Positions 17,312 to 37,952 of a DNA stretch of 64,000 bases are shown piece by piece; within the stretch, counting starts at the first letter, position 1, and every line of letters begins with the position of its first letter. This DNA is from Jiulongibacter sediminis (lineage in GTDB: Bacteria; Bacteroidota; Bacteroidia; Cytophagales; Spirosomataceae): the NCBI RefSeq assembly GCF_001306455.1, contig NZ_LGTQ01000006.1, forward strand, positions 992,001 to 1,056,000. Reading direction: 5' to 3'. A model generated the notes under the pieces. It saw only the letters and a program-made list of their open reading frames with translations, was not told the DNA's origin and made no database searches. Position numbers and translations under genes: made by a program.

Positions 17312-18070
17312 ATGAAAATTATTGACCTCTCCATTACCATCTCTGAAGAAGTAAAGGAGCCTTTGCCGACAAAGATTGTTTACGAAAATCATGAGGAAGG
17401 GGCTAAGAAAATCGGAGCCGGTCTTTTTGGTGGTATGACAGATTGCTTTATTGACAACAAAGGGCCAGCAGGTGAAATGTTGACGGTGACGAGTCATTGC
17501 GGTACGCACGTTGATGCACCTTATCACTATTTTCCGACCAGTGAGGGCAAACCCGCAAGGACTATCGACCAGATGCCACTCGAATGGTTTTTTCATGATG
17601 GAGTGGTGCTTGACTTTACAGATAAACCTGATGGTTTTATGTTTGAGCCTGAGGATCTCATTGAAAAGTTGGCAGCTATTAATTACACCCTCAAACCTTA
17701 TGATATCGTTTTGATTCGTTGCGACGCGGATAAGCGACTTCATGACGATGATTATGTGAAAATTCATGTCGGAGCTTCGGCCAAAGCTACCCACTGGCTT
17801 ATTGATCAGGGTATCAAAGTAATGGGAACCGACGGTTGGGGCTGGGATATTCCGCTTCACATTCAGGCAGAGGATTATAAAGCAAACCCAAGACCGGGCA
17901 TCATTTGGCAAGCTCATTATGTAGGAATTGAAAAGGAATATTGTCAAATTGAGAAATTGGCAAATCTTGATCAATTGCCTCCTTTTGGCTTTAAAGTAGC
18001 TTGTTTTCCAGCCAAAATAAAAGATGCAAGTGCCGGATGGACCCGGGCCGTAGCTATTCTAAATGATTGA
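17312..18070 (+). CDS. Cyclase-family metal-dependent hydrolase (PF04199)
   Basis: A 252-residue protein of the kynurenine formamidase/isatin hydrolase fold. The diagnostic metal motif HCGTHVDAPYHYFP is near residue 60, with a later conserved MGTDGWGWD near 172. Family members hydrolyse amides or lactone-like rings using Mn or Zn. The substrate is not predictable here; ring opening of a lactone or cyclic intermediate made by the neighbouring dehydrogenases is a reasonable guess. The AraC gene begins at its stop. Confidence 0.82.
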   Translation: MKIIDLSITISEEVKEPLPTKIVYENHEEGAKKIGAGLFGGMTDCFIDNKGPAGEMLTVTSHCGTHVDAPYHYFPTSEGKPARTIDQMPLEWFFHDGVVLDFTDKPDGFMFEPEDLIEKLAAINYTLKPYDIVLIRCDADKRLHDDDYVKIHVGASAKATHWLIDQGIKVMGTDGWGWDIPLHIQAEDYKANPRPGIIWQAHYVGIEKEYCQIEKLANLDQLPPFGFKVACFPAKIKDASAGWTRAVAILND

Positions 18071-18075
18071 AAGAG

Positions 18076-24045: not shown

Positions 24046-25239
24046 ATGAAAAAACTTTTCACCTATGAAAACAGGGTGGTGCTGCTGATGGCACTCACCT
24101 TCGGTTGTTTGTTTTTTGACAGACTCTCGCTCAATTTTCTGATGCCCTATGTGTCAGAGGATTTGAATCTGAACAACACACAGATAGGCCTTTTAGCCGG
24201 AGTGCTGTCTTTAGCTTGGGCCTTCTCCAGTTTCTTTTCTACCGCATGGGCGGAGGCAAAAAACAGAAAACGGCTGGTTTTTCTTGCGGGGGTTTTTGTG
24301 TTTTCGCTCTGTTCTTTTGGCTCCGGCTTAGCCATGACTTTTGGCGGGCTTTTGCTGGCCAGAATGGTAATGGGTTTTGCCGAAGGGCCTGTCATTCCTT
24401 TGGCTCAGAATTTTGTTGAGAAAGAGTCTTCACCGGGTCGACTTGGACTGAACACCGGCCTTTTGCAGGCGGTAGGTTCAGCTCTCTTCGGGTCTATTCT
24501 GGCACCGGTTATTCTGGTTCAAATTGCCGAGAATATGGGCTGGCGTTCGGCTTTTTATATCGCTGGTGTTCCCGGTTTGATGATGGGTCTTTTAAGCTGG
24601 TTCTTACTGAAAAAATCAACCACAGAAAGTGAAGGAATAGCGGAGCGTGACCAGGGCCTGAATCTTAAAGAATTATGGAGCTATACCAATGTTCGCTGGG
24701 GTATGGCCATTGCCTGCTGTGTTTTTGGCTGGTGGTTTGCCACTCTGCCATTTATTTCAAACTATTTTGTAAATCAACAAGGGATGACCGGCGATGAAAT
24801 GGGAAAAACAATGGGGCTTCTCGGGGTCTCAGGCCTGCTTTCATCAGTTTTAGTGCCGGGTTTATCTGATAAATTTGGTCGGAAAAAAATCCTACTCATT
24901 TTTAGTCTCATTGGAGCTTTCTATCCGTTTGCTGTTTATTCTTTGAGTGGGTCAGGTCTTCATTTACCTGCAATGTTCTTGACCTATTTTATGATGGGAT
25001 TAATCCCGGTAGCTGCGGCCGTCATTCCATCAGAAGCTGTTCCGGGACGGCTAAAAGCGAAGGCCATTGGATTAATCACCGCCGTGGGCGAAATCATTGG
25101 TGGAGTTTTGGTGCCAGCCTTGGCCGGAATGCTCTCAGATACCTATGATGCCTCGGCATTTCTTTGGGTGGCTGCGGCTTTAGCCGTGTTAACCTTTCTT
25201 TTTTCTTTTAAATTGGACTCCAAATCAACTCTATCTTAA
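24046..25239 (+). CDS. MFS transporter (ACS-like, organic anion uptake)
   Basis: A 397-residue inner-membrane carrier with about 12 hydrophobic segments. The N-terminal half has FFDRLSLNFLMPYVSEDLNL, typical of the anion:cation symporter group, and GFAEGPVIPLAQNFV near 108. The C-terminal half has PGLSDKFGRKK near 278. ACS members import hexuronates, phthalates and other aromatic acids with protons. Its place between esterases suggests uptake of an aromatic acid or aglycone released outside. Substrate not determinable from sequence. Confidence 0.85.
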   Translation: MKKLFTYENRVVLLMALTFGCLFFDRLSLNFLMPYVSEDLNLNNTQIGLLAGVLSLAWAFSSFFSTAWAEAKNRKRLVFLAGVFVFSLCSFGSGLAMTFGGLLLARMVMGFAEGPVIPLAQNFVEKESSPGRLGLNTGLLQAVGSALFGSILAPVILVQIAENMGWRSAFYIAGVPGLMMGLLSWFLLKKSTTESEGIAERDQGLNLKELWSYTNVRWGMAIACCVFGWWFATLPFISNYFVNQQGMTGDEMGKTMGLLGVSGLLSSVLVPGLSDKFGRKKILLIFSLIGAFYPFAVYSLSGSGLHLPAMFLTYFMMGLIPVAAAVIPSEAVPGRLKAKAIGLITAVGEIIGGVLVPALAGMLSDTYDASAFLWVAAALAVLTFLFSFKLDSKSTLS

Positions 25240-25243
25240 AATA

Positions 25244-26797
25244 ATGAGATCTTTTCTATGTCTGCTTCTTCTTTTCGGAAGTCAATTTGTCAATGCTCAG
25301 GAAGTTATCAAGCTATACGATGGCGTACCTCCCGGTTCCGAAAATGCCACCTGGAGTGAAGCTACTTCTACGAAAAATATGTTTAACACGGAGGTGGTGT
25401 ATAATGTGAAGGAACCAACAATAACGGCCTACCTTCCCGAAAAACACCTCAATACCGGCACAGCGATTATTGTAGCTCCCGGAGGGGCATTCCACACCTT
25501 GAGTATCAATAATGAAGGAGTGGATGTGGCCAAATGGCTCAATAGTAAAGGAATAGCTGCTTTCGTGCTCAAATATAGGGTTGCTCCCAGTTTTACGGAT
25601 GATCCGGTTAAAGAGCTCATGCCAAAAATGGCAAACTTCGATGCTTTGGATAAAGAAAATGAACCCTATGTAAGGCTGGCAACAGCCGATGGTCTTAAAG
25701 CTGTTGAATATGTGAGAAAGCATGCTGAAGAAATGGAGATTAATCCTGATAAAATTGGCTTCATGGGCTTTTCTGCCGGTGGTACGCTGACCATGTCGGT
25801 GGTATATAATGGCACCGAGAAAGACAGACCTAATTTTGTGGCTCCCATTTATGCCTATGAGCCAGCAGTGATTGGTTCAAAAATCCCGGTAGAGAAAACA
25901 CCTATTTTTGTTTGTGTAGCCGGTGATGATCAACTAAAAATGATGCCTATGAGTATATCCATCTATAAAAAGTGGTTTGATGCTGGCCAACCGGCTGAAC
26001 TACATATTTATGAGAAAGGAGGCCATGGTTTCGGGATGCGGGAGCAGAAGCTGCCGGTAGATAGCTGGTATGATCGTTTCGGTGACTGGCTAAGGGATCA
26101 AGGTTTGAGAGATAAAATCAGACCCAGCAAATACGAAAAGCAATTTGGCGAAGCTGAAGTAGAGAAAGGTGAACGAATGGCAGCCGAAAGATTGAGAAGA
26201 AATTTCGGAGGAATGGATCGATACAAAGAGGCTAATGCAAAACTCAATGGTGAAGCTCAAAAAGTCGTATTTCTCGGTAATTCCATCACCGAAGGATGGT
26301 ACCGTCAGGATGAAGATTTCTTTAAACGAAATCAGTTTGTAGGTCGTGGGATCAGTGGTCAAACCTCCTCGCAACTGCTCGTTCGTTTCAGACAGGATGT
26401 TGTGGATTTACATCCTGAGAAGGTGATCATTCACATCGGAACCAATGACGTTGCCGAAAACACCGGTCCGTATGATGAAGATTTCACCATCGGCAATATC
26501 GAATCCATGATTGACATTGCTGAACAAAACGGTATTCAGGTGTTGATTGCTTCGGTATTACCCGCAACCAAATTTGAGTGGAGGTTGGCCTTGGGTGACC
26601 GTTCCGCAGAAATCGTAAAGCTTAATGAACGTCTGAAAAGCCTGGCTAAGGAGAGAGTTTTGAAATACATCGACTACCACTCTGCCATGAAAAATGAGTC
26701 AAACGGCCTTAGCCCTGAACTGGCCGCAGACGGTGTGCACCCTACCGCCGAAGGCTTCAAAATCATGGAAAAACTGGTCCTTGAAGCTCTTAAATAA
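25244..26797 (+). CDS. Secreted fusion: alpha/beta-hydrolase esterase plus SGNH esterase
   Basis: 517 residues after a signal peptide (1-18, ending NAQ). Residues 20-290 are an alpha/beta hydrolase of the acetylxylan/feruloyl (BD-FAE-like) esterase group with GFSAGG (nucleophile) and EKGGHGFGM (His). Residues 335-517 are an SGNH/GDSL esterase with block I FLGNSITEGW, block III HIGTNDVAENT and block V DGVHPTAEGF. Both catalytic sets look intact, so it could remove two different acyl groups from one substrate. It starts 4 bases after the MFS stop. Confidence 0.9.
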   Translation: MRSFLCLLLLFGSQFVNAQEVIKLYDGVPPGSENATWSEATSTKNMFNTEVVYNVKEPTITAYLPEKHLNTGTAIIVAPGGAFHTLSINNEGVDVAKWLNSKGIAAFVLKYRVAPSFTDDPVKELMPKMANFDALDKENEPYVRLATADGLKAVEYVRKHAEEMEINPDKIGFMGFSAGGTLTMSVVYNGTEKDRPNFVAPIYAYEPAVIGSKIPVEKTPIFVCVAGDDQLKMMPMSISIYKKWFDAGQPAELHIYEKGGHGFGMREQKLPVDSWYDRFGDWLRDQGLRDKIRPSKYEKQFGEAEVEKGERMAAERLRRNFGGMDRYKEANAKLNGEAQKVVFLGNSITEGWYRQDEDFFKRNQFVGRGISGQTSSQLLVRFRQDVVDLHPEKVIIHIGTNDVAENTGPYDEDFTIGNIESMIDIAEQNGIQVLIASVLPATKFEWRLALGDRSAEIVKLNERLKSLAKERVLKYIDYHSAMKNESNGLSPELAADGVHPTAEGFKIMEKLVLEALK

Positions 26798-26881
26798 CTC
26801 CGTGGCCCTCCTTGCCTCCATGGTGTCCTCTGTGTTTCCAAATTCGACGAAAAGAGTTATACTGAGACTAAATTGACGAAC

Positions 26882-27826
26882 ATGAAAAAATTAATCATTC
26901 TATTACTACTGGCAACTGAAATTACCTTTGCCCAGCAAGTAGTTCCCCTATACGATGGCCTGCCACCCAATTCATTGGAAACAACAGATGAGGAGTCTAC
27001 CGGAGCAGAAAATCCGGGATGGTTTACCACCGTTTTGACTCCAACATTGACCCTTTATTTGCCTGAGCAAAGTAAAAATACAGGCACCGCGGTTATCGTT
27101 TCCCCGGGCGGCGGATACACCGGGCTGGCGATGCAACATGAAGGTCATGATATCGCCAAAAAATTACAGGAGAACGGAATCGCAGGCATTGTTTTGAAAT
27201 ACCGGCTCCCGAACCCTAAGTATGTAAAAAACAAAGAAGTTGTGCCTTTGCAGGACGCTCAAAGGGCTATTCAACTTGTACGTGAAAAAGCTGGAGGATG
27301 GGGTATTGACCCAACGAAAGTCGGCATCATGGGCAGCTCTGCCGGAGGGCATCTGGTTTCTACGGTAGGTACCCATTTTGGCAAAGCACAAATATCTAAT
27401 CCGCTGAACACTAGCCTTCGGCCAGGTTTTTTGATTCTGAATTATCCAGTCATCAGTTTTAAGGATGGAGTAGCACATAACGGTTCACGATATAATCTTG
27501 TTGGAGAAATGGCCCTTGGTTCTTATGAACAAAAATTTGGCAAGTCGCTGAAATATTATCCAGTGGCACTGGATCAAATTGAAGAGTATTCAAATGAACT
27601 TAAGGTGACAAAAGATACCCCGCCTACTTTCATCATGCATGCCGTTGATGATAAAGTGGTGCCCGTCGAAAATAGCCTGTTATTCATTTCTTCACTGCTG
27701 CAGCATGGGGTTGAGGTAGAATCTTTCTTCTACGAAAAAGGGGGACACGGTTTCGGAATGACCAACCCTGAAGCCAAAGTGCAATGGATAGATGCCTGCC
27801 TGTCATGGATTCTTGAAAGGAGATGA
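26882..27826 (+). CDS. Secreted alpha/beta-hydrolase esterase
   Basis: 314 residues from the ATG at 26882, with signal peptide MKKLIILLLLATEITFAQ. A TTG nine bases earlier is in frame but unlikely. It is a paralogue of the N-terminal domain of the preceding protein: both begin VxxLYDGxPP after the signal. Catalytic residues: GSSAGGHL (Ser), HAVDDKVVP (Asp), KGGHGFGM (His), oxyanion PGGGY. Acetylxylan or feruloyl esterase activity is likely, exact ester unknown. It overlaps an upstream possible start of the NIPSNAP gene by 4 bases. Confidence 0.88.
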   Translation: MKKLIILLLLATEITFAQQVVPLYDGLPPNSLETTDEESTGAENPGWFTTVLTPTLTLYLPEQSKNTGTAVIVSPGGGYTGLAMQHEGHDIAKKLQENGIAGIVLKYRLPNPKYVKNKEVVPLQDAQRAIQLVREKAGGWGIDPTKVGIMGSSAGGHLVSTVGTHFGKAQISNPLNTSLRPGFLILNYPVISFKDGVAHNGSRYNLVGEMALGSYEQKFGKSLKYYPVALDQIEEYSNELKVTKDTPPTFIMHAVDDKVVPVENSLLFISSLLQHGVEVESFFYEKGGHGFGMTNPEAKVQWIDACLSWILERR

Positions 27827-28787: not shown

Positions 28788-31700
28788 ATGAAAAATTTAC
28801 AATCAGCATTGGCCTTGACCTTGCTGGCTCTTACGGCCACAGCTCAATCACCTGAAAATTTCCAAAACCCGCCAAATTCGGCCAAACCTCGAGTATGGTG
28901 GCACTGGATGAATGGCAACGTCACCAAAGAAGGCATTCAAAAAGACCTCGACTGGATGGAACGAACAGGCATAGGCGGCTTCCAAAATTTTGATGCCAAC
29001 CTGATGACTCCACCAGTGGTGAAAGAAAAGCTTGTTTTCATGACACCCAAATGGAAGGAGGCTTTTAAGTTCACAACTGATCTTGCCAAAGAAAAAGATT
29101 TGGAAATGGCCATCGCCGGCTCACCGGGTTGGAGTGTTACCGGAGGCCCTTGGGTAAAGCCGGAGCACGGTATGAAGAAATATGTCTGGTCAGAAGTTTT
29201 ACTGAAAGGTGGTCAAACATTTTCGGGTAAAATACCTCAACCTTCTGATGTGGCGGGACCTTTTCAGGATGTGCCCATGGTTGGAGAAGCGGTGCTGAGT
29301 GATGAGAGCAATCATCAACTGCCACATTTTTACAGGGATGCCTATGTAATCGCCTACAAACTACCTGAAACGGAAAAACATCTGATGGATGCTCATCCTA
29401 AAATTTCTGTGAGCGGAGGTGATTTTGATGTGAGTAAATTGCTGGATCATGACATTGTCACCCGATTTGAAATTCCACCAACAGAAGTAGGTCAGGATAT
29501 GTATATTCAATATGCTTTTGATGAACCACAAACATTCAAAGCATTTGGAGTTGCCGGGGCATCAGAAGATCGTCTGGCTCAGTTTAACGGAGTTCCATTG
29601 AACAGGTCTCTGAAAGTCTCGGATGATGGGATTAATTTCAGAGAGGTGGTTCGGATGACCGGCAGCTATGTGGCTTTCAATACGATGTCAATTCCTGAAA
29701 CCACGGCAAAATACTGGCGTATGTGTTTTACAACCATGAAGCCTGAGCTGAGCCCGATTATGCGAATGATGGGCGTTACCGAGGCCAAGCCGCAAGGAGT
29801 AAAAGTTGGGGAGTTTGTCCTATTTAATACAAGCCGAATTGATCAATGGGAAGATAAGGCCGGATTTATGCCATGGACAGAAACAGGTCTGGAAAGTGGT
29901 TCAGCATCAGATGACGTCATTGCTCCACAAAATATCATTAACCTTAGCTCCAAAATGGCGGAAGATGGTAGTTTAACCTGGGAGGTTCCACCGGGAGAAT
30001 GGATGATTCTGAGATTGGGCTATTCCCTGACCGGGCGTGAGAATCATCCGGCATCACCCGAAGCTACAGGTCTGGAAGTGGATAAGCTGGATGAAAACGC
30101 GGTGAGAACCTATATCAATGCTTACCTAGATATGTATCAGGATGCCACCGGAAATCAAATGGGAGAGAATGGTTTGGGTTATATGATCTTGGATAGCTAC
30201 GAAGCAGGTCATATGAACTGGACGCATGATTTTCCTGAAGAATTTAAAAGAAGAAGAGGATATGATCTGCTTCCATGGCTGCCTGCTTTAACCGGCCGGG
30301 TGGTCAAAAGCATGGAAGCCAGCGAAAAATTCCTTTGGGATTTCCGTAAAACCATTGGTGAAATGATTGTTGATAATCATTATGAGGTGATCGGTGAAGA
30401 ATTGCATAAAAGAGGGATGAAACGTTATACCGAATCACACGAAAACAAACGGATTTATTTGGCTGACGGTATGGATGTGAAAAAGAATGCAGACATTCCT
30501 ATGTCAGCCATGTGGACTCCGGGCAGCCTTGCCGGAGGAGAAGATGAAGAACCACGCAGTGAGGCTGATATTCGTGAGGCAGCATCTGTGGCCAATATTT
30601 ATGGTAAACCGTATGTAGCGGCAGAGTCGATGACTTCTGTTGGTAAGTCTTTTCAGGAATACCCGGAGAAGCTCAAAAGAACGGCTGATCTCGAGCTGGC
30701 TTCCGGTCTGAATCGTTTTGTAATTCACACTTCAGTTCACCAGCCTCTGGATAAAGGCCCGGGTTTTTCTTTAGGACCATTCGGGCAATATTTCAGTCGT
30801 TTGGAAACCTGGAGTGGAGCAGGTGCCAGAGCCTGGATAGGTTATCTGGGCAGAAGCTCCTACATGATGCAACAAGGTCAGAATGTCGCTGACATCCTTT
30901 ATCTGTATGGAGAAAATACAAATGCCACATGGGTGAGTCGTGAGAAACTTCCTGAAACCCCTGAAGGGTATGAATGGGATTTTGTGAGTGCTTCTATCTT
31001 GAAAGAGGCGATCAAGGCCAATGATCAGGGAGAATTGGTAGCTCCTTCCGGAAATCGATATAAGGTTTTAATGCTGGATGAAAGTACGAGCGAAATGACA
31101 CTTTCCACTCTGCAGAAAATTGGAGAGTTGGCTACCAATGGGGTAAAAATTATTGGTAAAAAACCTGTAAAATCTCCATCTCTGGTTGATAATCAGTGGT
31201 ATTTTGAAAAACTGGCCAATGCTATTTGGAGCAGAAGTAATGTAGGGCCAAATGTAAGTATAGATTCATCGCCGGATGTTTTAGTGAACGGAACAGATCA
31301 TAAGGTTTTGTTCCGTCATAGAAAAACAGAAGATGCTGATATTTATTGGTTGAATAACCGAAATGTAGAGCCAACTGAAGCGACGATTAGCTTCAATGTT
31401 AGTAACAAAACTCCAAAACTTTGGAATGCGGAAACAGGTGAAATTACGGAACTGGCGTATTCCCAAAAAGATGGCAGAACGGAAGTGCCTCTTCATTTGA
31501 AATCCTGGGATGCCGTATTTGTTGTTTTTGATGAGCCTTCGGCTCAAAATCAGGTAGCTGTGGCCTTGCCCGTTAAAAAATCGGAGCAGGTGATTGCTGG
31601 TCAGTGGAATGTCAATTTTGATGGACTCTCAAAACAAATGACGCATCTGGTTTCGTGGACGGAAGACGAGAATACTAAACATTTCAGCGGTACGGCAGTA

Positions 31701-32039
31701 TACTCCTTAAGCTTCAAAAAGAAGAAAATTAATTCCAATGAGACCTATTTGTTAGAGTTGGAGGATTTGAAAAATATTGCTGAGGTTTCATTGAATGGTC
31801 AGGTTGTAAGCACCATCTGGAAGAAGCCCTATCAAGCTGACCTAACCGGAGCTATCAAAAAAGGAATAAACACGCTGGAAATTAAAGTCACCAACACCTG
31901 GGTAAACAAGTTGGTTGGCGATGCTGCGAAACAAGGTGAAGAAAAGGAGACGTTTACGACCATGCCATTTTATGCTCCAAACAGCCCTCTTTATCCAGCG
32001 GGTATTCTAGGAAAAGTGAAATTGATCTCTTTGGAGTAA
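28788..32039 (+). CDS. Secreted GH106 alpha-L-rhamnosidase-like glycoside hydrolase
   Basis: A 1083-residue exported enzyme (signal 1-19, ending TAQ). The GH106 opening block is clear: KPRVWWHWMNGNVTKEGI near residues 32-49, then GGFQNFDANL and AGSPGWSVTGGPWVKPE. Later blocks include DSYEAGHMNWTHDFPEEF near 467 and a C-terminal beta domain with a galactose-binding-like fold (near 940-1080). GH106 enzymes remove terminal alpha-L-rhamnose from plant polysaccharides or from flavonoid glycosides. It is followed 4 bases later by a cytosolic cupin and an SDR, an odd company for a polysaccharide enzyme and suggestive of a rhamnosylated small molecule. Confidence 0.9.
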   Translation: MKNLQSALALTLLALTATAQSPENFQNPPNSAKPRVWWHWMNGNVTKEGIQKDLDWMERTGIGGFQNFDANLMTPPVVKEKLVFMTPKWKEAFKFTTDLAKEKDLEMAIAGSPGWSVTGGPWVKPEHGMKKYVWSEVLLKGGQTFSGKIPQPSDVAGPFQDVPMVGEAVLSDESNHQLPHFYRDAYVIAYKLPETEKHLMDAHPKISVSGGDFDVSKLLDHDIVTRFEIPPTEVGQDMYIQYAFDEPQTFKAFGVAGASEDRLAQFNGVPLNRSLKVSDDGINFREVVRMTGSYVAFNTMSIPETTAKYWRMCFTTMKPELSPIMRMMGVTEAKPQGVKVGEFVLFNTSRIDQWEDKAGFMPWTETGLESGSASDDVIAPQNIINLSSKMAEDGSLTWEVPPGEWMILRLGYSLTGRENHPASPEATGLEVDKLDENAVRTYINAYLDMYQDATGNQMGENGLGYMILDSYEAGHMNWTHDFPEEFKRRRGYDLLPWLPALTGRVVKSMEASEKFLWDFRKTIGEMIVDNHYEVIGEELHKRGMKRYTESHENKRIYLADGMDVKKNADIPMSAMWTPGSLAGGEDEEPRSEADIREAASVANIYGKPYVAAESMTSVGKSFQEYPEKLKRTADLELASGLNRFVIHTSVHQPLDKGPGFSLGPFGQYFSRLETWSGAGARAWIGYLGRSSYMMQQGQNVADILYLYGENTNATWVSREKLPETPEGYEWDFVSASILKEAIKANDQGELVAPSGNRYKVLMLDESTSEMTLSTLQKIGELATNGVKIIGKKPVKSPSLVDNQWYFEKLANAIWSRSNVGPNVSIDSSPDVLVNGTDHKVLFRHRKTEDADIYWLNNRNVEPTEATISFNVSNKTPKLWNAETGEITELAYSQKDGRTEVPLHLKSWDAVFVVFDEPSAQNQVAVALPVKKSEQVIAGQWNVNFDGLSKQMTHLVSWTEDENTKHFSGTAVYSLSFKKKKINSNETYLLELEDLKNIAEVSLNGQVVSTIWKKPYQADLTGAIKKGINTLEIKVTNTWVNKLVGDAAKQGEEKETFTTMPFYAPNSPLYPAGILGKVKLISLE

Positions 32040-32043
32040 AGTC

Positions 32044-32529
32044 ATGGATAAAATTCGACGAATTGTAACAGGTCATGATAGTGACGGATCAGCAATTTTC
32101 AGAGATGATGATTTAATTGAACCTTTAGTCATACCTACTGGAGATGCAGCCATGGCCACTCTTTGGACTTCCGAAAGTTTACCTGCAGACTGTAATGACG
32201 AAACAGATGGCCGACTTCGGGATGCCGGGACAACCATTCAGCAAGGTTCAGTACTTCGAGTAGTAGATATGCTTCCGGGAGCTTCTTCTCCAATGCATCG
32301 CACCAGTAGTATAGATTATGGAATAGTAATTTCTGGTTCCATTGAGCTGGAGTTAGATCACGGTGTTTTTAAGACCGTAAATGCCGGGGAGGTTATTGTT
32401 CAGAGGGGCACCATTCATAAATGGAGGAATCCAAGTAATAATAATATTTGCCGAATCATTTTTGTGCTCACAGAGGCCAAAGCTTTTGAAGTCAATGGAT
32501 TGCCATTACCCGAGGTAATGGAGCATTAA
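32044..32529 (+). CDS. Cupin-domain protein
   Basis: 161 residues, one cupin barrel (residues 70-150) with PMHRTSSIDYGIVISGSIELELD as motif 1 and GEVIVQRGTIHKWRNPS as motif 2, supplying metal His residues. No signal peptide, so cytosolic. Small cupins in aromatic operons act as dioxygenases, isomerases or decarboxylation helpers; none can be chosen from sequence. It starts 4 bases after the GH106 stop. Confidence 0.8.
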   Translation: MDKIRRIVTGHDSDGSAIFRDDDLIEPLVIPTGDAAMATLWTSESLPADCNDETDGRLRDAGTTIQQGSVLRVVDMLPGASSPMHRTSSIDYGIVISGSIELELDHGVFKTVNAGEVIVQRGTIHKWRNPSNNNICRIIFVLTEAKAFEVNGLPLPEVMEH

Positions 32530-32556
32530 AAAGAATGGGGTCAAATTCGTATTTGT

Positions 32557-33321
32557 ATGGAATTTTTGAATAAGGTCTGTTACGTAACGGGAGCGGGTTC
32601 AGGTATTGGTAAAGCTACGGCTTTAGCATTCGCACGAGATGGAGCTCATGTTGTTGTTTGTGATATTAACGCTGAAGGTGCTTCCCAGACCGGAAAGGAA
32701 ATTTCGGATATGGGAGGAGAAGTCCTTTGTCTTCCCTTAAATATTGCCCGTCCCGACGAAGTTGAGCGATCGATTCAGCAAACGGTTGAGAGGTTTGGCC
32801 GATTAGACTGTGCGGCCAACATCGCTGGTATAGCTGGGCCGGTTTCAAAAAGAATTCATGAGTACCCTGAAGAATTTTGGAAACAACAGATCGAGGTAAA
32901 TCTTACAGGAACCTGGTATTGCTTGAAATATCAACTTGCTCAGATGTTAGTCAATGGCGGAGGTTCCATTGTCAATCTTTCCTCTGCTGCGGGGCTGATT
33001 GCTCAGCCCGAAAACTCTCCTTATGCCGCTTCCAAACATGGGGTGGTTGGTTTAACCCGAACTGCGGCCAAAGAATACGCAACTGATCATATTCGGGTTA
33101 ACGCTGTTTGTCCTACAGCAATTGAAACTCCAATGATCATGGAAGGACGTCGAAAACTCGCCCATAACCCGGAGGCCCGTCAGGCAGCGATTGATTTTCA
33201 GGCCATGAAGCGAATGGGAACCCCACAAGAAATTGCAAATGTCATTCTTTGGCTTTGTTCCGAGAAATCAAGCTTTATAACCGGGGTAGCTTTTGCCGCT
33301 GATGGCGGGGCCTTGGCTTGA
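32557..33321 (+). CDS. Short-chain dehydrogenase/reductase
   Basis: A 254-residue classical SDR with TGAGSGIGKA (residues 10-19), CDIN (Asp, hinting at NAD preference), NIAGIAG near 88, VNLSSAAG (catalytic Ser), YAASK (Tyr-x3-Lys) near 155 and a C-terminal FAADGGALA. It lies 27 bases after the cupin and probably closes the GH106-cupin-SDR transcript. It could oxidise an alcohol or cis-diol intermediate of the adjacent ring-cleavage pathway. Confidence 0.85.
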   Translation: MEFLNKVCYVTGAGSGIGKATALAFARDGAHVVVCDINAEGASQTGKEISDMGGEVLCLPLNIARPDEVERSIQQTVERFGRLDCAANIAGIAGPVSKRIHEYPEEFWKQQIEVNLTGTWYCLKYQLAQMLVNGGGSIVNLSSAAGLIAQPENSPYAASKHGVVGLTRTAAKEYATDHIRVNAVCPTAIETPMIMEGRRKLAHNPEARQAAIDFQAMKRMGTPQEIANVILWLCSEKSSFITGVAFAADGGALA

Positions 33322-33630
33322 AAATTTTGAGCCATGAAATATACGGTAATCATGGAAGATTTCATTCTTCACACGGAAAGGGATGGTTTATTTTAAAACC
33401 GAGTAAGATCTGAGTTTCTTTTCTCCGTTGACTCAATACTCATAAGTCATAGATTTCTGAAATAGAAGTTTCGATTAGTTAAAGCCAAAATTGAATATCA
33501 GGAGGCTCAAAATGAAAACTATTTAAATAAATTGGATTGATAGTGAATATTTTAGGAATGAATCTGATTCAAAAGAAACAGGTCTATGACTTAAATTTGT
33601 ACAATTCAAAAAGCAAATAGTATCATTTAT
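33322..33630 (+). promoter_or_regulatory. Non-coding gap with -7 element for the dioxygenase operon
   Basis: 309 bases without a credible gene. Near the right end TAAATTTG (33592-33599) is an exact TAnnTTTG box, 31 bases before the dioxygenase ATG. No strong hairpin terminator for the SDR was seen; GGTTTATTTTAAAACC (near 33384) is a weak inverted repeat. Confidence 0.4.
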
Positions 33631-34623
33631 ATGGCAAAGAACCCGCATTTCCTATCTCAAATGGCCCATGTTGAGGTACTCACAAAAGATTTGGAGAAGT
33701 CTGTTGAGTTTTTTAGAGACGTTGTAGGAATGGATGAGACCGGTAGAGAGGAAAATTCAGTTTACCTGAGAGCCTGGGGAGATTACTTTCATCATACACT
33801 TAAATTAACTCAAAGTGAACAATCCGGCCTTGGACATATTGGCTGGCGTGCCGATAGCCCGGAAGCTTTGCAAGAATGTGTCGCCTATCTTGAAAATATT
33901 GGTGCTGGTCGCGGCTGGCATGATGGTGATTTGGGGCATGGGAAGGCCTATCGGTTTCAATCGCCGGACGGCCACATGCACGAGGTGTTCTGGGATGTGG
34001 TTTGGTTGAGAGAAGAAGGTGAACGAGGAAGTATTTATGCGGACCGTTACTCAAGCAATCGACTGAAAGGTGCAAACCCGAGAAGGTTTGACCACGTCAC
34101 TTATATGGTGGCTAAAGGGAAATACCCGGCAGAAAAGGCCTTTTGGAAGGGAATGGGTTTGAAAAATCCGGATGAAATCAGAATGACAGATGACATGCCA
34201 CCTATCGGGGGGTTACACACAATTGCTAACCTTTCTCATGATATTGCTGTCTTTACTGATCCAAATATTGGCGAAAACGAGGCAGTTCTAAACCACATTT
34301 GCTGGAATGTTGATAGCCGTGAAGAAGTGCTATTGGCTCTCGACTATTTCATCGAAAAGGGCTTCAAAAGTGTGATGGGAGCACCTACCCGCCATAAGGC
34401 TGACGAAGGTTTCTTCATTTACATCACTGATCCGGGAAGCGGAATTCTGTTTGAGTATTACGCTTGTGCCCGCCTGGTTTTTGCTCCTGACCATCTGGAT
34501 GTTCATTATCTCAAAGATAATCCGAATGACGCCTGGGGATCGGCCAACCCGTTTGCAGAAATGGGGAAAGGGAAAAAACTGGGGCTTTCAGAGGATGGAA
34601 CCGTAAAGCCGGTTGACATTTAA
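33631..34623 (+). CDS. Extradiol (catechol 2,3-dioxygenase-like) ring-cleavage enzyme, VOC family
   Basis: 330 residues with two tandem VOC modules, the architecture of type I extradiol dioxygenases. The Fe(II) ligands are His155 (RRFDHVTY), His222 (LNHICWN) and Glu275 (GILFEYYA). The second-sphere catalytic residues His203, His255 (PTRHKADEG) and Tyr264 are also kept, so the enzyme should be active. It would open a catechol-type ring next to the hydroxyls. Its partner in the same operon, an FAD monooxygenase, would make that catechol. The substrate is unlikely to be free catechol because of the unusual C-terminal extension (300-330) and context. Confidence 0.9.
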   Translation: MAKNPHFLSQMAHVEVLTKDLEKSVEFFRDVVGMDETGREENSVYLRAWGDYFHHTLKLTQSEQSGLGHIGWRADSPEALQECVAYLENIGAGRGWHDGDLGHGKAYRFQSPDGHMHEVFWDVVWLREEGERGSIYADRYSSNRLKGANPRRFDHVTYMVAKGKYPAEKAFWKGMGLKNPDEIRMTDDMPPIGGLHTIANLSHDIAVFTDPNIGENEAVLNHICWNVDSREEVLLALDYFIEKGFKSVMGAPTRHKADEGFFIYITDPGSGILFEYYACARLVFAPDHLDVHYLKDNPNDAWGSANPFAEMGKGKKLGLSEDGTVKPVDI

Positions 34624-34668
34624 GTCAACCTGTTTTTACACAATAGAAATTCAAAATATCAAGAATAT

Positions 34669-35784
34669 ATGTGGCATTATTTTCCCGGGCATTACATGCC
34701 TTCTTATCAGGTAAACAGAGCTCTTACTCAGGCCCATTATGGTGGAGGTGAGTTTGCAGAAATACTGGAAGTTGCAAGTGAAATTGATCCCGAAAACAGA
34801 GAAACTTTTAATCTCGCCTGGCTTAAAAAAGGCAATGAGGTTTTTGAGTGGGCAGAGGCGTATGAGAAAAAAAAAGCCTTCGTTTCAGCTCGAAGAACCT
34901 ACCTGAGGGCTTTCAATTATTTACGAAGTGCAGAGTTTTTTATGAATCTGCATGATGAGCGAAAAAACGAAACTTATATCAAAGCCCGGGAGGCATTTTT
35001 AAGAGCGATCAAATACTTTGACGAAAAGCCTTTGCAGATAGAAGTTCCTTTTGAAGGTTCTTTTTTGCCCGGGTATTTATTCAAACCTACGGGTGTTAAA
35101 AATCCACCGGTGATGCTGATGTTTGGCGGTCTGGATAGCCTGGCGGAGGAATTGTATTTTGGCATTGGAAATCATTTAAATGAGCGGGGGATTGCTCTTT
35201 TAGCCGTAGACGGGCCGGGACAAGGAGCAGCATTAAGGCTAAATCATATTCATTCGCGTTATGACTTTAATGTTGCAGGAACTGCCGTACTTGATTGGAT
35301 TCTGGAAAATCTCGGAGATGAAGTGGATACCAGCCGTGTTGGTATTGCCGGCGTCTCTATGGGAGGTTATATGGCGGCTCGTTGTGCAGCTTTTGAGCCT
35401 CGATTTAAGGTATGTATGATTTTTGGTGCAGTCTGGTCTTACTATTCGGTATGGGCCGGTCGCAGCGGGAAACATCCACTGGCTGAAATTGTCATGCATA
35501 TCATGGATGCTGAGTCGTACGAAGAAGTACTTGAGAAACTCAAGGGATACACTTTGGAAAATGGTGTTGCTGAAAAAATTTCCATGCCGACCTTCATTAT
35601 GCACGGTGGTGGAGATAAACAGAATTTTGTGTCACATGCCATTGAATTAGAGAAACACCTGACCTGTGAACATGAAATGAAAATAGTGCCCGAAGGGCAA
35701 AGCGGAGCTCAACACTGTCAGGTCGATGATTTTATGCCCACGTTAGATATGTACGATTGGATTGCAGAAAAAATAAAAGCCTGA
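34669..35784 (+). CDS. Alpha/beta hydrolase with N-terminal helical cap (C-C bond hydrolase type)
   Basis: 371 residues. A helical N-terminal part (1-120) precedes the alpha/beta core (125-371), as in 2,6-dihydropseudooxynicotine hydrolase and FrsA-like proteins. The core has VDGPGQGAA, nucleophile Ser in GIAGVSMGGYMAAR near 227, an Asp in HGGGDKQN and His in AQHCQVDDF near 345. DHPON hydrolase splits a C-C bond of a diketone-like side chain, so hydrolysis of the ring-cleavage product or its keto tail is plausible. It lies 45 bases after the dioxygenase. Confidence 0.85.
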   Translation: MWHYFPGHYMPSYQVNRALTQAHYGGGEFAEILEVASEIDPENRETFNLAWLKKGNEVFEWAEAYEKKKAFVSARRTYLRAFNYLRSAEFFMNLHDERKNETYIKAREAFLRAIKYFDEKPLQIEVPFEGSFLPGYLFKPTGVKNPPVMLMFGGLDSLAEELYFGIGNHLNERGIALLAVDGPGQGAALRLNHIHSRYDFNVAGTAVLDWILENLGDEVDTSRVGIAGVSMGGYMAARCAAFEPRFKVCMIFGAVWSYYSVWAGRSGKHPLAEIVMHIMDAESYEEVLEKLKGYTLENGVAEKISMPTFIMHGGGDKQNFVSHAIELEKHLTCEHEMKIVPEGQSGAQHCQVDDFMPTLDMYDWIAEKIKA

Positions 35785-35810
35785 TCTCAAACTCAACCCA
35801 GAATTGAAAA

Positions 35811-36947
35811 ATGAATGCTGTAAAAAAAGTACTTGTTGTCGGAGGTGGCATTGGAGGACAATCTGTAGCCATTGGTCTCAGACGTGCCGGTATTGATGTT
35901 GAAATTGCTGAAATTCTTCCCGAATTCAATGTTTATGGTGTTGGAATTATCCAACAGCAAAATGCACTAAGAGCACTTGATGATCTGGGCATTGGGCAGG
36001 AGGCCCTTCGCAGAGGATCACCTTATGGTCAGGTGAAAATGTTTACAGCAGGAGGGCATCCTGTGGGTCTGGCAGGTGCTCCGGCCAATGAAAAATATCC
36101 GAGCCATAACGGTATTTCAAGAAGAGTACTTCACGAAGTGATGTTTGAGGAAGCATCTAAACTTGGAGTTCCCTTTAGAATGGGTTTAACTGTTGAAAAC
36201 CTTGAAAACCGGGAAGATGGAGTAAGCGTCACTTTTACAGATGGTTCTGAAGGAGAATATGATTTGTTGATAGCTTCTGATGGTATCAATTCGAAAGTTC
36301 GGGGAATGGTCTTTGAAGATTTGCAACCGCGGTACGTCGGCCTTTCGGTTTGGCGATACCCCTTCAAAAGACATGAAGATTTAGACACAGGATATATTTA
36401 TTACGGTCGCAGGAGCAAGATTGGGTTTATCCCCATGAATGAAGAGAGCATGTACATGTTTTTAGTTTCTGCAGAAGGTGTAGACCCCTCGATTCCCAAA
36501 GAACAATTGGTGCCTAAGCTGGTGGATTACATGTCTGAGTACCCGGTGAAAATTGCTCAGGATGCCATCAAAGAAGTCACAAGGGCTGAGCTTGTCAATT
36601 ATCGGCCTTTGGAGGCTCTTCGGCTTTCGAACCCCTGGTATAAAAACCGGGTGGTTATTATTGGAGACGCGGCTCATGCCACCATTCCTCAATTGGGTTC
36701 AGGAGCGGCTCTAGCTATTGAAGATGCAGTAGTATTAGCAGATGAGTTACAAAAGAATCCGGAAGTAAACATAGCTTTAGAAGCCTTCATGAAACGTCGT
36801 TATGATCGATGTATGATGGTGGTCAATGCTTCCGAAACCCTCGGCGAATGGGAGCTTTTAGAATTTGAAGGAAAGCCTTTGCCCGAAGGTGCTAACCCCG
36901 GAGCTTTAATCGGGAGAACTGTAGGAGCCTTGGGGGCACCGATTTAG
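35811..36947 (+). CDS. FAD-dependent aromatic monooxygenase
   Basis: A 378-residue class A flavin hydroxylase. FAD motifs: VVGGGIGGQSVAIGLRRAGIDV (residues 8-29), LIASDGINSKVR near 152 and VVIIGDAAHATIPQLGSGAALAIEDA near 280. The overall pattern is of the salicylate hydroxylase/6-hydroxynicotinate monooxygenase group. It would ortho-hydroxylate a phenol to give the catechol for the upstream extradiol enzyme. The pairing is like FdeE with FdeC of naringenin degradation. Starts 26 bases after the hydrolase. Confidence 0.9.
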   Translation: MNAVKKVLVVGGGIGGQSVAIGLRRAGIDVEIAEILPEFNVYGVGIIQQQNALRALDDLGIGQEALRRGSPYGQVKMFTAGGHPVGLAGAPANEKYPSHNGISRRVLHEVMFEEASKLGVPFRMGLTVENLENREDGVSVTFTDGSEGEYDLLIASDGINSKVRGMVFEDLQPRYVGLSVWRYPFKRHEDLDTGYIYYGRRSKIGFIPMNEESMYMFLVSAEGVDPSIPKEQLVPKLVDYMSEYPVKIAQDAIKEVTRAELVNYRPLEALRLSNPWYKNRVVIIGDAAHATIPQLGSGAALAIEDAVVLADELQKNPEVNIALEAFMKRRYDRCMMVVNASETLGEWELLEFEGKPLPEGANPGALIGRTVGALGAPI

Positions 36948-36960
36948 TGTTTGAATCCGA

Positions 36961-36983
36961 GGTCCCTGAGCTTGTTGAAGGGC
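36961..36983. repeat. REP-like short repeat, copy 2
   Basis: GGTCCCTGAGCTTGTTGAAG followed by GGC. On the reverse strand it has the pattern CCTTC-N5-GCTCAGG-N-ACC shared with 5945-5966. It sits in the gap between the FAD monooxygenase stop and the true FAH-family start, like copy 1 between two operon genes. Confidence 0.45.
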
Positions 36984-36998
36984 AAAAAAAACAAAAAA

Positions 36999-37952
36999 AT
37001 GAAACTTATTACATTTCGTAAGAAAGACAATAAAACCAGCATAGGATGGCTTCAGGGAAATGATGTTGTGGATATGCAAAAGGCAAGTCCGGAGCTTCCG
37101 GGTGATATGTTGACGTTTATTGATCATCACGAAACATATTTTGATATCATCGAAAAGCTTGGCAAAATTGAGCCTCATTTTTCAATCGATGAGGTAAAAT
37201 TGCTTCCGCCATTACCAAACCCGCGAAGTGTACGCGATTATATTGGTTTTGAAATGCATATGCTGAATGCTTCGCGTTCATTTGGACATAGCATCAGCGA
37301 AGTATGGTATGAAATGCCTATTTACTATTTCACCAATCATCAGGCGATTTACGGACCGGAGGATGAAATTGCACGGCCTCCAAAAGAAACCAAAATGGAT
37401 TTGGAGCTGGAAATCGCAGCTATTATTGGTAAAGGAGGTAAGGACATCGAAGCCGGTAAGGCAGATGCTCATATTTTCGGGTATACCATTTTTAACGACT
37501 GGACAGCCCGGGCCATCCAAAAACGAGAGATGGAAATGCCTTTAGGGCCTTGCAAGGGGAAGGACTTTGCCAATGCCTTTGGTCCTTGCATTGTAACAGC
37601 CGATGAATTCGAACAATACCGGGTACCATTTTCTGAAGAATTTTTCAATGAGCCGTTGCGAACTCCTGAACGCAAAGCCGATCGTTTCAATGTAAAAATG
37701 GAAGCCAGAATAAATGGTGTAACTGTTTGTGAAGGTAATTATAAAACAGTTTACCACTCTTTTGGTGAGATGATAGAGCGAGCCTCTGAGAATGGTGTAC
37801 AGCTTATGCCCGGTGATATTCTGGGTTCAGGAACAGTAGGGTGGGGTAGTCTGATTGAAAATAAATTCAGCGTTCACAGGCCCATTGTGCCGGGTGATGT
37901 AGTAGAGCTTGAAATTGAAGGAATTGGAGTTTTGAGAAATAAGGTGATATAG
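36999..37952 (+). CDS. Fumarylacetoacetate hydrolase (FAH) family protein
   Basis: 317 residues from the ATG at 36999; an in-frame start at 36951 would read through the repeat and is rejected. The FAH core (residues 80-315) has the metal-binding acids MDLELEIAAII and FNDWTARAIQ, and the C-terminal GDILGSGTVGWGS. Members hydrolyse C-C bonds of acylpyruvates or hydrate 2-hydroxypentadienoate-type products of meta cleavage. It is the last gene of the dioxygenase operon and is followed by a strong terminator. The step is probably cleavage of the final acylpyruvate-like intermediate. Confidence 0.9.
   Translation: MKLITFRKKDNKTSIGWLQGNDVVDMQKASPELPGDMLTFIDHHETYFDIIEKLGKIEPHFSIDEVKLLPPLPNPRSVRDYIGFEMHMLNASRSFGHSISEVWYEMPIYYFTNHQAIYGPEDEIARPPKETKMDLELEIAAIIGKGGKDIEAGKADAHIFGYTIFNDWTARAIQKREMEMPLGPCKGKDFANAFGPCIVTADEFEQYRVPFSEEFFNEPLRTPERKADRFNVKMEARINGVTVCEGNYKTVYHSFGEMIERASENGVQLMPGDILGSGTVGWGSLIENKFSVHRPIVPGDVVELEIEGIGVLRNKVI

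What the first reader, a model, noticed from the sequence alone, without database searches (positions are those of the whole stretch)
28788..37952. Rhamnosidase plus extradiol ring-cleavage cluster: candidate flavonoid-glycoside degradation pathway in a Bacteroidota
Seen: a secreted GH106 rhamnosidase is followed by cytosolic cupin, SDR, two-module extradiol dioxygenase with all iron and catalytic residues, a capped C-C-type hydrolase, an FAD aromatic monooxygenase and an FAH-family hydrolase. Known: in Herbaspirillum seropedicae naringenin is hydroxylated at C8 by the FAD monooxygenase FdeE and its A ring is opened by the extradiol enzyme FdeC, with cupin, SDR and hydrolase genes in the same operon (recalled from literature, not checked). 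Inferred: here a rhamnosylated flavonoid (naringin, rutin type) is stripped of rhamnose outside the cell, hydroxylated, meta-cleaved and hydrolysed. Linking the glycosidase and the ring-cleavage steps in one locus, in this phylum, would be new as far as I know.
Basis: partly seen in the sequence, partly recalled or inferred. Interest (0 to 1): 0.85.

Follow-up and report, generated by a model that had tools for sequence, protein, structure and literature searches.

The report
Flavonoid-glycoside breakdown island in Bacteroidota
A stretch of a Bacteroidota chromosome carries what looks like a complete route for stripping sugars from plant flavonoids, breaking one ring open with an unusual dioxygenase and feeding the other ring into central metabolism; the core gene set recurs in many relatives, but what it acts on is inferred, not measured.

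Summary
The genes at 28788-37952 are as described. VOC dioxygenase, alpha/beta hydrolase, FAD monooxygenase and FAH occur together in 44 of 69 related loci, 67 of them Bacteroidota.

Flavonoid breakdown is well supported by sequence. The FAD enzyme is in the same NCBIfam subfamily as those of eight related proteobacterial or Deinococcus clusters, several fde/ifc-like. GH106 matches solved structure 6q2f (flavonoid rhamnosidase RHA-P by recall) far better than Bacteroides BT_0986. The C-glycoside deglycosidase marker was found in 2 of 296 sampled Bacteroidota genomes; both carry this dioxygenase.

It forms a separate Bacteroidota/Bacillota clade and misses the catechol, homoprotocatechuate and biphenyl cut-offs.

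Most likely this is a flavonoid A-ring meta-cleavage pathway with a non-orthologous ring-opening enzyme, joined in one locus to deglycosylation and B-ring catabolism: a new variant of a known kind.

The parts
2162..3373 (-). pcaF, 3-oxoadipyl-CoA thiolase
   Evidence: NCBIfam TIGR02430 616 bits, cut-off 597
3376..4719 (-). pcaIJ fused 3-oxoacid CoA-transferase
   Evidence: TIGR02428 and TIGR02429 above cut-off
4723..5916 (-). pobA-like 4-hydroxybenzoate 3-monooxygenase
   Evidence: PRK08243 564 bits, cut-off 351; equivalog TIGR02360 497 bits, below its cut-off 538.7
5986..7107 (-). pcaDC fusion, enol-lactonase and carboxymuconolactone decarboxylase
   Evidence: NF051488 465 bits, cut-off 390
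7104..8408 (-). pcaB-like 3-carboxymuconate cycloisomerase
   Evidence: TIGR02426 352.7 bits, just under cut-off 355.75; PRK09053 497 bits, under cut-off 595
8411..8935 (-). pcaG, protocatechuate 3,4-dioxygenase alpha
   Evidence: TIGR02423 186 bits, cut-off 126
9112..9819 (-). pcaH, protocatechuate 3,4-dioxygenase beta
   Evidence: TIGR02422 342 bits, cut-off 296; 61% to Hymenobacter PcaH
9982..10854 (+). AraC-type regulator next to the pob/pca operon
   Evidence: PF12833
11792..12556 (-). IclR-type regulator of the PcaR/PcaU/PobR family
   Evidence: TIGR02431 289.5 bits, cut-off 284.75
12631..13713 (+). Rieske oxygenase, VanA-like (O-demethylase or hydroxylase)
   Evidence: PF19112 VanA_C and PF00355
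13713..14684 (+). VanB-like reductase
   Evidence: FAD_binding_6, NAD_binding_1, Fer2
14839..15126 (+). ABM-domain-like small protein of the module
   Evidence: 46% over 95 aa to Hymenobacter monticola ABM protein
15127..16407 (+). HisD-like dehydrogenase, nearest solved relative sulfopropanediol dehydrogenase
   Evidence: PF00815; 8v35 368 bits against 277 for the best entry named histidinol dehydrogenase; second HisD, 38%, elsewhere in the genome
16476..17243 (+). SDR1, partner of HisD
   Evidence: among 48 long loci all 20 with SDR1 also have HisD
17312..18070 (+). PF04199 cyclase-family hydrolase
   Evidence: PF04199; found at E<=1e-60 in 3 of 296 Bacteroidota genomes, all with the dioxygenase
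18067..18975 (+). AraC regulator of the module
   Evidence: present in 39 of 69 loci
19123..20808 (+). Sulfatase
   Evidence: PF00884; not recovered near the dioxygenase in the 69 loci
20801..22834 (+). GH3 glycosidase
   Evidence: PF00933, PF01915; GH3 in 17 of 69 loci
22848..23984 (+). Esterase with CBM48, feruloyl-esterase-like
   Evidence: PF00756; NF041944 188 bits, below cut-off 1200
24046..25239 (+). MFS transporter, probable aglycone importer
   Evidence: PF07690; present in 25 of 69 loci
25244..26797 (+). Esterase with GDSL domain (ABH1)
   Evidence: PF13472, PF01738; 18 of 69 loci
26873..27826 (+). BD-FAE type esterase
   Evidence: PF20434
27823..28656 (+). NIPSNAP-domain protein
   Evidence: PF07978
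28788..32039 (+). GH106 alpha-L-rhamnosidase with N-terminal signal-like leader (by eye)
   Evidence: PF17132 1045 bits; 6q2f 806 bits, 5mqm (BT_0986) 457 bits
32044..32529 (+). Cupin
   Evidence: PF07883; 58% to the Novosphingobium pNL2 cluster cupin
32557..33321 (+). SDR2, partner of cupin
   Evidence: association with cupin
33631..34623 (+). Type I extradiol ring-cleavage dioxygenase (VOC), not FdeC-like
34669..35784 (+). DHPON-hydrolase-like C-C bond hydrolase
   Evidence: 2jbw E 3e-23
35811..36947 (+). FAD monooxygenase, PRK06847 subfamily, proposed A-ring hydroxylase
   Evidence: 408 bits, cut-off 372; same subfamily in related clusters
36951..37952 (+). FAH-family hydrolase
   Evidence: PF01557

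Best explanation
The island at about 2.2-38.0 kb encodes a route that takes glycosylated flavonoids to central metabolism. Secreted GH106 and GH3 glycosidases, esterases and a sulfatase strip the conjugates (inferred from families and co-location). An MFS carrier brings in the aglycone (inferred). The PRK06847-subfamily flavin monooxygenase adds a hydroxyl to the A ring, making a catechol (inferred by analogy with FdeE and IfcA). The extradiol dioxygenase at 33631 opens that ring (its residues are shown, its substrate inferred). The DHPON-type hydrolase cuts a C-C bond of the opened ring (inferred). FAH, cyclase, cupin/SDR2 and HisD/SDR1 process the remaining C-ring fragment (order unknown). 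The B ring leaves as 4-hydroxybenzoate, protocatechuate or a methoxylated acid, which the VanAB-like pair and the adjacent pob/pca operon carry to succinyl-CoA and acetyl-CoA (families shown). It works like the fde and ifc pathways but opens the ring with a dioxygenase of a different subfamily.
For: Conserved module: VOC, ABH, FADMO and FAH in 66, 63, 57 and 51 of 69 loci, all four in 44 of 69 and in 39 of 48 long loci. FADMO subfamily shared with eight related proteobacterial or Deinococcus clusters, at 32-43% identity, like the 36.3% published for IfcA and FdeE. Mixes of ABH, FADMO, cyclase, cupin, FAH, SDR and HisD are found in Burkholderia, Massilia, Azospirillum, Novosphingobium, Rhizobium K84, Deinococcus and Sphingobium plasmid clusters. 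C-glycoside deglycosidase beta subunit in 6 of 69 loci, against 2 of 296 Bacteroidota genomes, both dioxygenase-positive. GH106 in 10 of 69 loci, 1.25 Mb in all, against about one gene per 10 Mb in 98 genomes of the window's order. GH106 closest to 6q2f. pob/pca operon adjacent here and in Hymenobacter monticola.
Against: No substrate, induction or enzyme data. The dioxygenase is not FdeC-like. The window has no match to the FdeD-like Rieske ferredoxin, EthD protein, transporter or epimerase of fde-like clusters. The FAD tree did not resolve how the Bacteroidota clade joins the FdeE-like rows. In the ifc system, disruption of the DHPON-like hydrolase did not affect daidzein degradation. In genome G030 only AraC and cyclase, not hydrolase, FAD enzyme or FAH, were found within the 20 kb around the dioxygenase. 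GH106 was not found in 59 of 69 loci; pcaH was found in only 3 of 69, though flanks were 10-14 kb. Dioxygenase relatives at 36-40% lie in other catabolic settings in Thermus, Methylobacterium, Pantoea and Agrobacterium.
Confidence: 0.7

Rival explanations
1. The core degrades another glycosylated plant or algal polyphenol, such as a C-glycosyl xanthone, dihydrochalcone, stilbene or phlorotannin-like compound, by the same chemistry.
For: Nine loci, all titled as Flavobacteriaceae genera that I recall as marine (Zobellia, Maribacter, Arenibacter and others), carry the module with a shared sulfatase family. Known C-glycoside deglycosidases tolerate varied aglycones including a xanthonoid and an anthraquinone (PMC8563793, passages). 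The dioxygenase is non-orthologous to FdeC-like enzymes.
Against: FAD enzyme subfamily, hydrolase, cyclase and cupin are shared with fde/ifc-like clusters; the adjacent pob/pca operon fits a flavonoid B ring.
Confidence: 0.18
2. Two unrelated clusters lie side by side: a rhamnose-polysaccharide utilisation set (GH106, GH3, sulfatase, esterases) and an aromatic meta-cleavage set.
For: GH106 also acts on pectin in Bacteroides (BT_0986, recalled); no CGD, SMP-30 lactonase or Hymenobacter-like TonB receptor was found in the window; the window's sulfatase was not recovered in related loci.
Against: GH106, GH3 and esterase ABH1 recur near the dioxygenase in 10, 17 and 18 of 69 loci, GH106 in loci titled to at least five families; GH106 is nearer 6q2f (806 bits) than BT_0986 (457 bits); genes run on one strand, most with small gaps.
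Confidence: 0.08
3. A simple aromatic acid or catechol meta-pathway (catechol, homoprotocatechuate, biphenyl) with no link to flavonoids.
For: Best NCBIfam profile of the dioxygenase is catechol 2,3-dioxygenase, 210 bits.
Against: The equivalog cut-offs for catechol 2,3-dioxygenase, HpaD and BphC are missed (320, 321, 366 bits); none of the island proteins scanned was named a semialdehyde dehydrogenase, 2-hydroxypentadienoate hydratase or aldolase; the hydrolase is of the DHPON type.
Confidence: 0.04

Closest known systems
fde operon of Herbaspirillum seropedicae SmR1 (naringenin; Marin et al. 2013, 2016, not read, known here through passages of PMC8552027, PMC11303751 and PMC11069340)
   Same: FAD monooxygenase that hydroxylates the A ring, then A-ring dioxygenation by a glyoxalase-type enzyme; further metabolism through protocatechuate.
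   Different: Window dioxygenase is not of the FdeC-like subfamily; no FdeD-like Rieske ferredoxin found in the window; glycosidases and pca genes lie in the same locus; different phylum.
ifc cluster of Variovorax V35 (isoflavones; PMC11069340, passages and sections 15-16 read)
   Same: FAD monooxygenase, glyoxalase-type dioxygenase, DHPON-like alpha/beta hydrolase, cupins.
   Different: IfcB is 65.8% identical to FdeC by the paper; the window enzyme is of another subfamily than FdeC-like enzymes; IfcA homologues were reported from Proteobacteria only; the parts read name no glycosidase in that cluster.
GH106 rhamnosidase RHA-P of Novosphingobium sp. PP1Y (PDB 6q2f by recall)
   Same: 6q2f is the best solved match of the window GH106, 806 bits over 1058 residues.
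   Different: No GH106 match was found in the 35 kb around the HisD/cupin locus of PP1Y.
PurABC/CarABC C-glycoside deglycosylation (PMC8563793, PMC12724307, passages)
   Same: Related deglycosidase genes adjoin the module in some Bacteroidota and Paenibacillus, and related clusters of Deinococcus and Sphingobium.
   Different: Not found in the window, which has O-glycosidases instead.
beta-ketoadipate (pca/pob) pathway
   Same: pobA, pcaH, pcaG, pcaB, pcaDC, pcaIJ and pcaF in one operon-like run in the window.
   Different: Nothing unusual noticed except its location and the pcaDC and pcaIJ fusions.

Membership tests
fde/ifc flavonoid A-ring meta-cleavage pathway | FAD monooxygenase of the FdeE/IfcA kind | tested here: inconclusive
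   Same NCBIfam subfamily PRK06847 above cut-off as fde/ifc-like cluster enzymes, 32-43% identity; joining unresolved in the tree; authentic FdeE and IfcA not available.
fde/ifc flavonoid A-ring meta-cleavage pathway | FdeC/IfcB-type extradiol dioxygenase | tested here: not met
   33 bits to an FdeC-like enzyme; separated at 100/100 from four FdeC-like enzymes. FdeC-like judged by gene context.
fde/ifc flavonoid A-ring meta-cleavage pathway | Small Rieske ferredoxin FdeD | tested here: not met
   Three such ferredoxins gave no tblastn match in the window at E 1e-3.
fde/ifc flavonoid A-ring meta-cleavage pathway | IfcD-type cupin | tested here: inconclusive
   35% to the Burkholderia fde-like cluster cupin, 58% to the Novosphingobium cluster cupin; IfcD not available.
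fde/ifc flavonoid A-ring meta-cleavage pathway | Activity on flavonoids | not testable with these tools
   Needs enzyme assay.
Type I (VOC) extradiol dioxygenase | Two-His-one-Glu metal site and active-site His and Tyr | tested here: met
   H155, H222, E275, H203, H255, Y264 present; the roles of the residues are recalled.
Catechol 2,3-dioxygenase / HpaD / BphC equivalogs | Score above curated cut-off | tested here: not met
   210 of 320, 123 of 321, 55 of 366 bits.
GH106 alpha-L-rhamnosidase | PF17132 above gathering score | tested here: met
   1045 bits, cut-off 29.
Flavonoid-active GH106 (RHA-P type) | Activity on naringin or rutin | not testable with these tools
   Only sequence proximity to 6q2f.
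Protocatechuate beta-ketoadipate pathway | pcaHG, pcaB, pcaC, pcaD, pcaIJ, pcaF | tested here: met
   All genes found; pcaB three bits under its TIGRFAM equivalog cut-off.
Histidinol dehydrogenase (biosynthetic) | Sole HisD of the genome, nearest to biosynthetic enzymes | tested here: not met
   A second HisD, 38% identical, lies elsewhere; window copy nearer to sulfopropanediol dehydrogenase, although it passes the hisD cut-off TIGR00069. The setting of the second copy was not examined.
C-glycoside deglycosidase system | CGD alpha and beta subunits in the locus | tested here: not met
   No match in window; CGDB not found in own genome; present in 6 of 69 related loci.

The most novel reading that the evidence does not exclude
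Bacteroidota and some Bacillota have their own flavonoid A-ring cleavage pathway. A catechol-dioxygenase-like extradiol enzyme stands in for the FdeC type, and the whole route from O- or C-glycoside to TCA-cycle precursors is packaged as one island that spreads on plasmids and between classes.
Probability: 0.5. Interest if true: 0.75.

Novelty: new variant of a known kind. Interest (0 to 1): 0.62.

Why it matters
Bacteroidota are known mainly as polysaccharide degraders (general knowledge). A conserved pathway for the aromatic part of flavonoid glycosides would assign them a direct part in the turnover of a major class of plant phenolics in fresh water, soil and perhaps the sea. It gives gene markers to find this in metagenomes, names a ring-opening enzyme clade to assay, and makes testable whether sugar removal and ring cleavage are one inducible programme.

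Tried and rejected
FdeC orthology of the window dioxygenase: rejected, against FdeC-like stand-ins. Ordinary catechol, homoprotocatechuate or biphenyl pathway: rejected on cut-offs and missing downstream genes. A strictly exclusive choice between HisD/SDR1 and cupin/SDR2 as alternative branches: looked likely by eye, but the tests gave p 0.17 to 0.36, so it is not claimed. Catechin 4-hydroxylation by the Rieske enzyme: a lead from memory; two literature searches gave nothing usable in their listings. Literature that would name a Bacteroidota flavonoid ring-cleavage cluster: none seen in the listings, which showed 4 to 20 papers each; the library lacks most subscription papers. PMC4440368 held none of the terms sought. 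PMC8305402 and PMC11153144 gave only side information (passages), PMC13298368 only a general account of GH106 (passages). The Variovorax plasmid regions L090, L104 and L105 did not show a clear ifc-like cluster and were not used as references; L089 showed only cupin and SDR, L095 was not used further. No structure prediction was run.

Dropped or faulty rows: in the first tree run (45 dioxygenase rows) the row of the own-genome paralogue was translated from the wrong strand, so that dioxygenase tree is not used. The tree has 26 rows: the paralogue corrected, and about half of the Bacteroidota loci, the Emticicia and Hymenobacter plasmid rows, the Roseomonas FdeC-like row and three more distant VOC rows left out. 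The FAD tree (37 rows) was kept. One search counted 71 loci, one of them (L014) a duplicate of L058, since contig lengths agree; the 69 loci leave out L014 and also L016 (G030), which lacks most of the module. The 67 loci came from a scan for two peptide motifs, so relatives lacking both are missed; some genomes give two loci (for example L054 and L081); several loci are short, so absences are lower bounds. ORFs were picked greedily by length, so 3 of 69 loci show no dioxygenase model there, among them L008, which has one by annotation. The CGDB model was built from four proteins, two of them of locus L024, which it then counts.

Full report
What is there. The seven genes of the finding are real, intact and in the stated order on the + strand: GH106 rhamnosidase, cupin, SDR, two-module extradiol dioxygenase, alpha/beta hydrolase, FAD monooxygenase and FAH-family hydrolase. 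Gaps between them run from 3 to 45 bases except one of 309. The dioxygenase keeps H155, H222 and E275 and the active-site H203, H255 and Y264 (roles recalled from homoprotocatechuate 2,3-dioxygenase). The hydrolase is closest in the PDB to 2,6-dihydroxypseudooxynicotine hydrolase, an enzyme that cuts a C-C bond (as PMC11069340 says).

The island is larger than the finding. Upstream on the same strand lie a VanA-like Rieske oxygenase and a VanB-like reductase, a 95-residue ABM-like protein, a HisD-like dehydrogenase, an SDR, a PF04199 cyclase-family hydrolase, an AraC regulator, a sulfatase, a GH3 glycosidase, esterases and an MFS carrier. The ABM gene was found by comparison with a Hymenobacter protein. 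Further upstream, on the - strand at 2162-9819, is a 4-hydroxybenzoate/protocatechuate operon with all expected functions, and an IclR regulator of the PcaR/PobR family at 11792. PcaF, PcaIJ, PcaDC, PcaG and PcaH score above NCBIfam's curated cut-offs. PcaB is three bits below its TIGRFAM cut-off, and PobA passes the subfamily but not the equivalog cut-off.

Conservation. A motif scan of one genome per species found 67 loci encoding a relative of the dioxygenase: 65 Bacteroidota by title, one Paenibacillus, one Bacillus. With two annotated plasmids (Emticicia oligotrophica; Hymenobacter monticola) this makes 69 loci. By blastp the dioxygenase model was recovered in 66, the hydrolase in 63, the FAD enzyme in 57, FAH in 51, AraC in 39, cyclase in 35, HisD in 31, SDR1 in 26, MFS in 25, SDR2 and esterase ABH1 in 18 each, GH3 in 17, cupin in 12, GH106 in 10, Rieske in 5 and pcaH in 3. 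All four core genes are in 44 of 69 loci and at least three in 59; a number of the loci are short. Among 48 loci of at least 18 kb the core four stand at 48 (dioxygenase), 45, 47 and 43, all four in 39. There HisD and SDR1 go together (all 20 SDR1 loci have HisD; p 1e-9) and so do cupin and SDR2 (9 of 11 cupin loci; p 3e-4). These p values ignore kinship between loci. In an even draw of Bacteroidota genomes the dioxygenase was found at E<=1e-60 in 5 of 395 and the cyclase in 3 of 296, all three of which carry the dioxygenase. One of these, G030, has only AraC and cyclase beside its dioxygenase in 20 kb, so the module is rare and mostly, not always, cohesive.

Link to glycosides. GH106 lies near the dioxygenase in 10 of 69 loci, which span 1.25 Mb in all. 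They include Hymenobacter, Fibrella, Spirosoma, Paraflavisolibacter (two loci of one genome), a Saprospiraceae MAG and a record titled Flavobacterium sp. SUN052. In 98 genomes of the window's order only 25 have any GH106; my hand count of the table gives 43 genes or pieces in about 438 Mb, one per 10 Mb. In the window's own family the same count gives about one per 3 Mb. The co-location is therefore well above background in either case (0.1 to 0.4 expected in 1.25 Mb). The window GH106 matches 6q2f with 806 bits over 1058 residues, and the Bacteroides BT_0986 structure (5mqm) with 457 bits. That 6q2f is RHA-P of Novosphingobium sp. PP1Y, a flavonoid-active rhamnosidase, is recalled; a paper read in passages names RHA-P as a GH106 enzyme of that strain and BT_0986 as 5MQM (PMC6828813). 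Six of 69 loci, and the related clusters of Deinococcus aetherius and Sphingobium sp. TomTYG65, carry the C-glycoside deglycosidase beta subunit PF19906. In 296 Bacteroidota genomes that family was found in two, G190 and G030, and both are among the five genomes. In G030 the deglycosidase is about 5 kb from the dioxygenase; in G190 it is on another contig. Enzymes of this kind act on C-glycosyl flavonoids, a xanthonoid and an anthraquinone (PMC8563793, passages), and a 2025 paper already notes PurABC homologues in Bacteroidota (PMC12724307, passages).

Link to known flavonoid pathways. In Variovorax the ifc genes comprise an FAD monooxygenase (IfcA, 8-hydroxylation of daidzein), a glyoxalase-type dioxygenase (IfcB) and cupins (IfcD1, IfcD2), with a DHPON-like hydrolase in the same cluster (PMC11069340, passages and sections 15-16). 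Disruption of that hydrolase did not affect daidzein degradation, which counts against assuming its role here. In Herbaspirillum, FdeE with the Rieske protein FdeD hydroxylates naringenin (PMC8552027, passages; FdeE also PMC11303751, passages). Plasmid clusters with much of this gene content were read in Burkholderia anthina, Massilia putida, Azospirillum B510, Bradyrhizobium and Roseomonas; I call them fde/ifc-like by content, since authentic Fde and Ifc sequences could not be fetched. Their FAD enzymes, those of Novosphingobium, Rhizobium K84, Deinococcus, Sphingobium and Hymenobacter, and the window's belong to NCBIfam PRK06847 above cut-off, except one gene piece from Roseomonas that is split by an insertion sequence and scores 256 of 372 bits. 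The window enzyme is 32-43% identical to those outside Bacteroidota; IfcA and FdeE are 36.3% identical. In the tree the FdeE-like rows and the Bacteroidota clade are each supported at 90 or more, but how they join is not resolved.

Where the analogy fails. The window dioxygenase shares 33 bits with the FdeC-like enzyme of B. anthina. In a 26-row tree four FdeC-like enzymes and two Novosphingobium enzymes are split from it at 100/100, while it sits in a Bacteroidota clade joined by Paenibacillus and Bacillus. Long branches between the two groups make their exact joining unsure, but not their distinctness. It also misses the equivalog cut-offs for catechol 2,3-dioxygenase, HpaD and BphC. Rhizobium K84 and Deinococcus clusters with related FAD enzymes and hydrolases also hold a catechol-dioxygenase-like enzyme. 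So ring opening appears to be done by at least two non-orthologous dioxygenase types in otherwise similar gene sets. More distant relatives of the window enzyme, at 36-40%, lie in other settings, some beside ligK, on plasmids of Thermus, Methylobacterium, Pantoea and Agrobacterium. No match to an FdeD-like ferredoxin, or to the EthD protein, transporter or epimerase of the B. anthina cluster, was found in the window.

Proposed mechanism. Sugars, acyl groups and sulfate are removed outside the cell or in the periplasm; the aglycone is imported; the flavin enzyme makes an A-ring catechol; the dioxygenase opens it; the hydrolase, FAH, cyclase, cupin/SDR2 and HisD/SDR1 shorten the remainder; the B ring enters the pob/pca operon, after O-demethylation where needed. 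Families, order and residues are shown; every substrate is inferred. That A-ring cleavage of dihydrogossypetin leads to protocatechuate in a pseudomonad is recalled from the 1972 work of Jeffrey and colleagues and was not read. HisD is nearest in the PDB to sulfopropanediol dehydrogenase, which I recall as an alcohol-to-acid enzyme, and close relatives are common on rhizobial plasmids, so it is not specific to this pathway.

Verdict. It is a new variant of a known kind of pathway. Mobility is suggested by plasmid copies in Emticicia and Hymenobacter and by 13.5 kb of 80% DNA identity between Fibrella forsythiae and a record titled Flavobacterium sp. SUN052, if that title is right.

Noticed in passing
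2162-9819 (-): pobA-pca operon with pcaDC and pcaIJ fusions next to the island, flanked by AraC and IclR regulators.
   Followed up: yes
57780-59171 (+): Apiosidase-like enzyme (PF13204) in the same window; apiose occurs on some flavone glycosides (recalled), but no link was tested.
   Followed up: no
38169-40415 (+): PVC-type heme-binding protein with cytochrome c domain (DUF7133) directly downstream of the island; not recovered in the related loci.
   Followed up: no
L030, L031, L032, L034, L035, L036, L041, L042, L064: Nine loci of Flavobacteriaceae genera that I recall as marine (Zobellia, Maribacter, Arenibacter and others) carry the module with a shared sulfatase family and a TonB receptor, seven of them also with an O-methyltransferase; sulfated seagrass flavonoids are a possible substrate (speculation).
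   Followed up: partly
L051 and L053: 13.5 kb at 80% DNA identity between Fibrella forsythiae and a record titled Flavobacterium sp. SUN052, suggesting transfer between classes or a wrong title.
   Followed up: partly
L002 / L017 (G000:C26): Own-genome paralogue of the dioxygenase (36%) that groups with Thermus, Pantoea and Agrobacterium enzymes and has Tyr where the island type has His203.
   Followed up: partly
L033, L037, L053, L055, L056, L060, L066, L076, L077, L081: SMP-30/gluconolactonase gene near the dioxygenase in 10 of 69 loci, and annotated in Azospirillum, Deinococcus and Massilia clusters; a candidate lactonase of the pathway, not found in the window.
   Followed up: partly
L054 and L081 (one contig of Paraflavisolibacter caeni): Two copies of the dioxygenase module lie close together on one contig, one with GH106 and C-glycoside deglycosidase genes, the other with GH106 and HisD.
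   Followed up: no
window 48681-54463: DUF1800/DUF1501 pair followed by a PA14-domain protein, away from the island.
   Followed up: no
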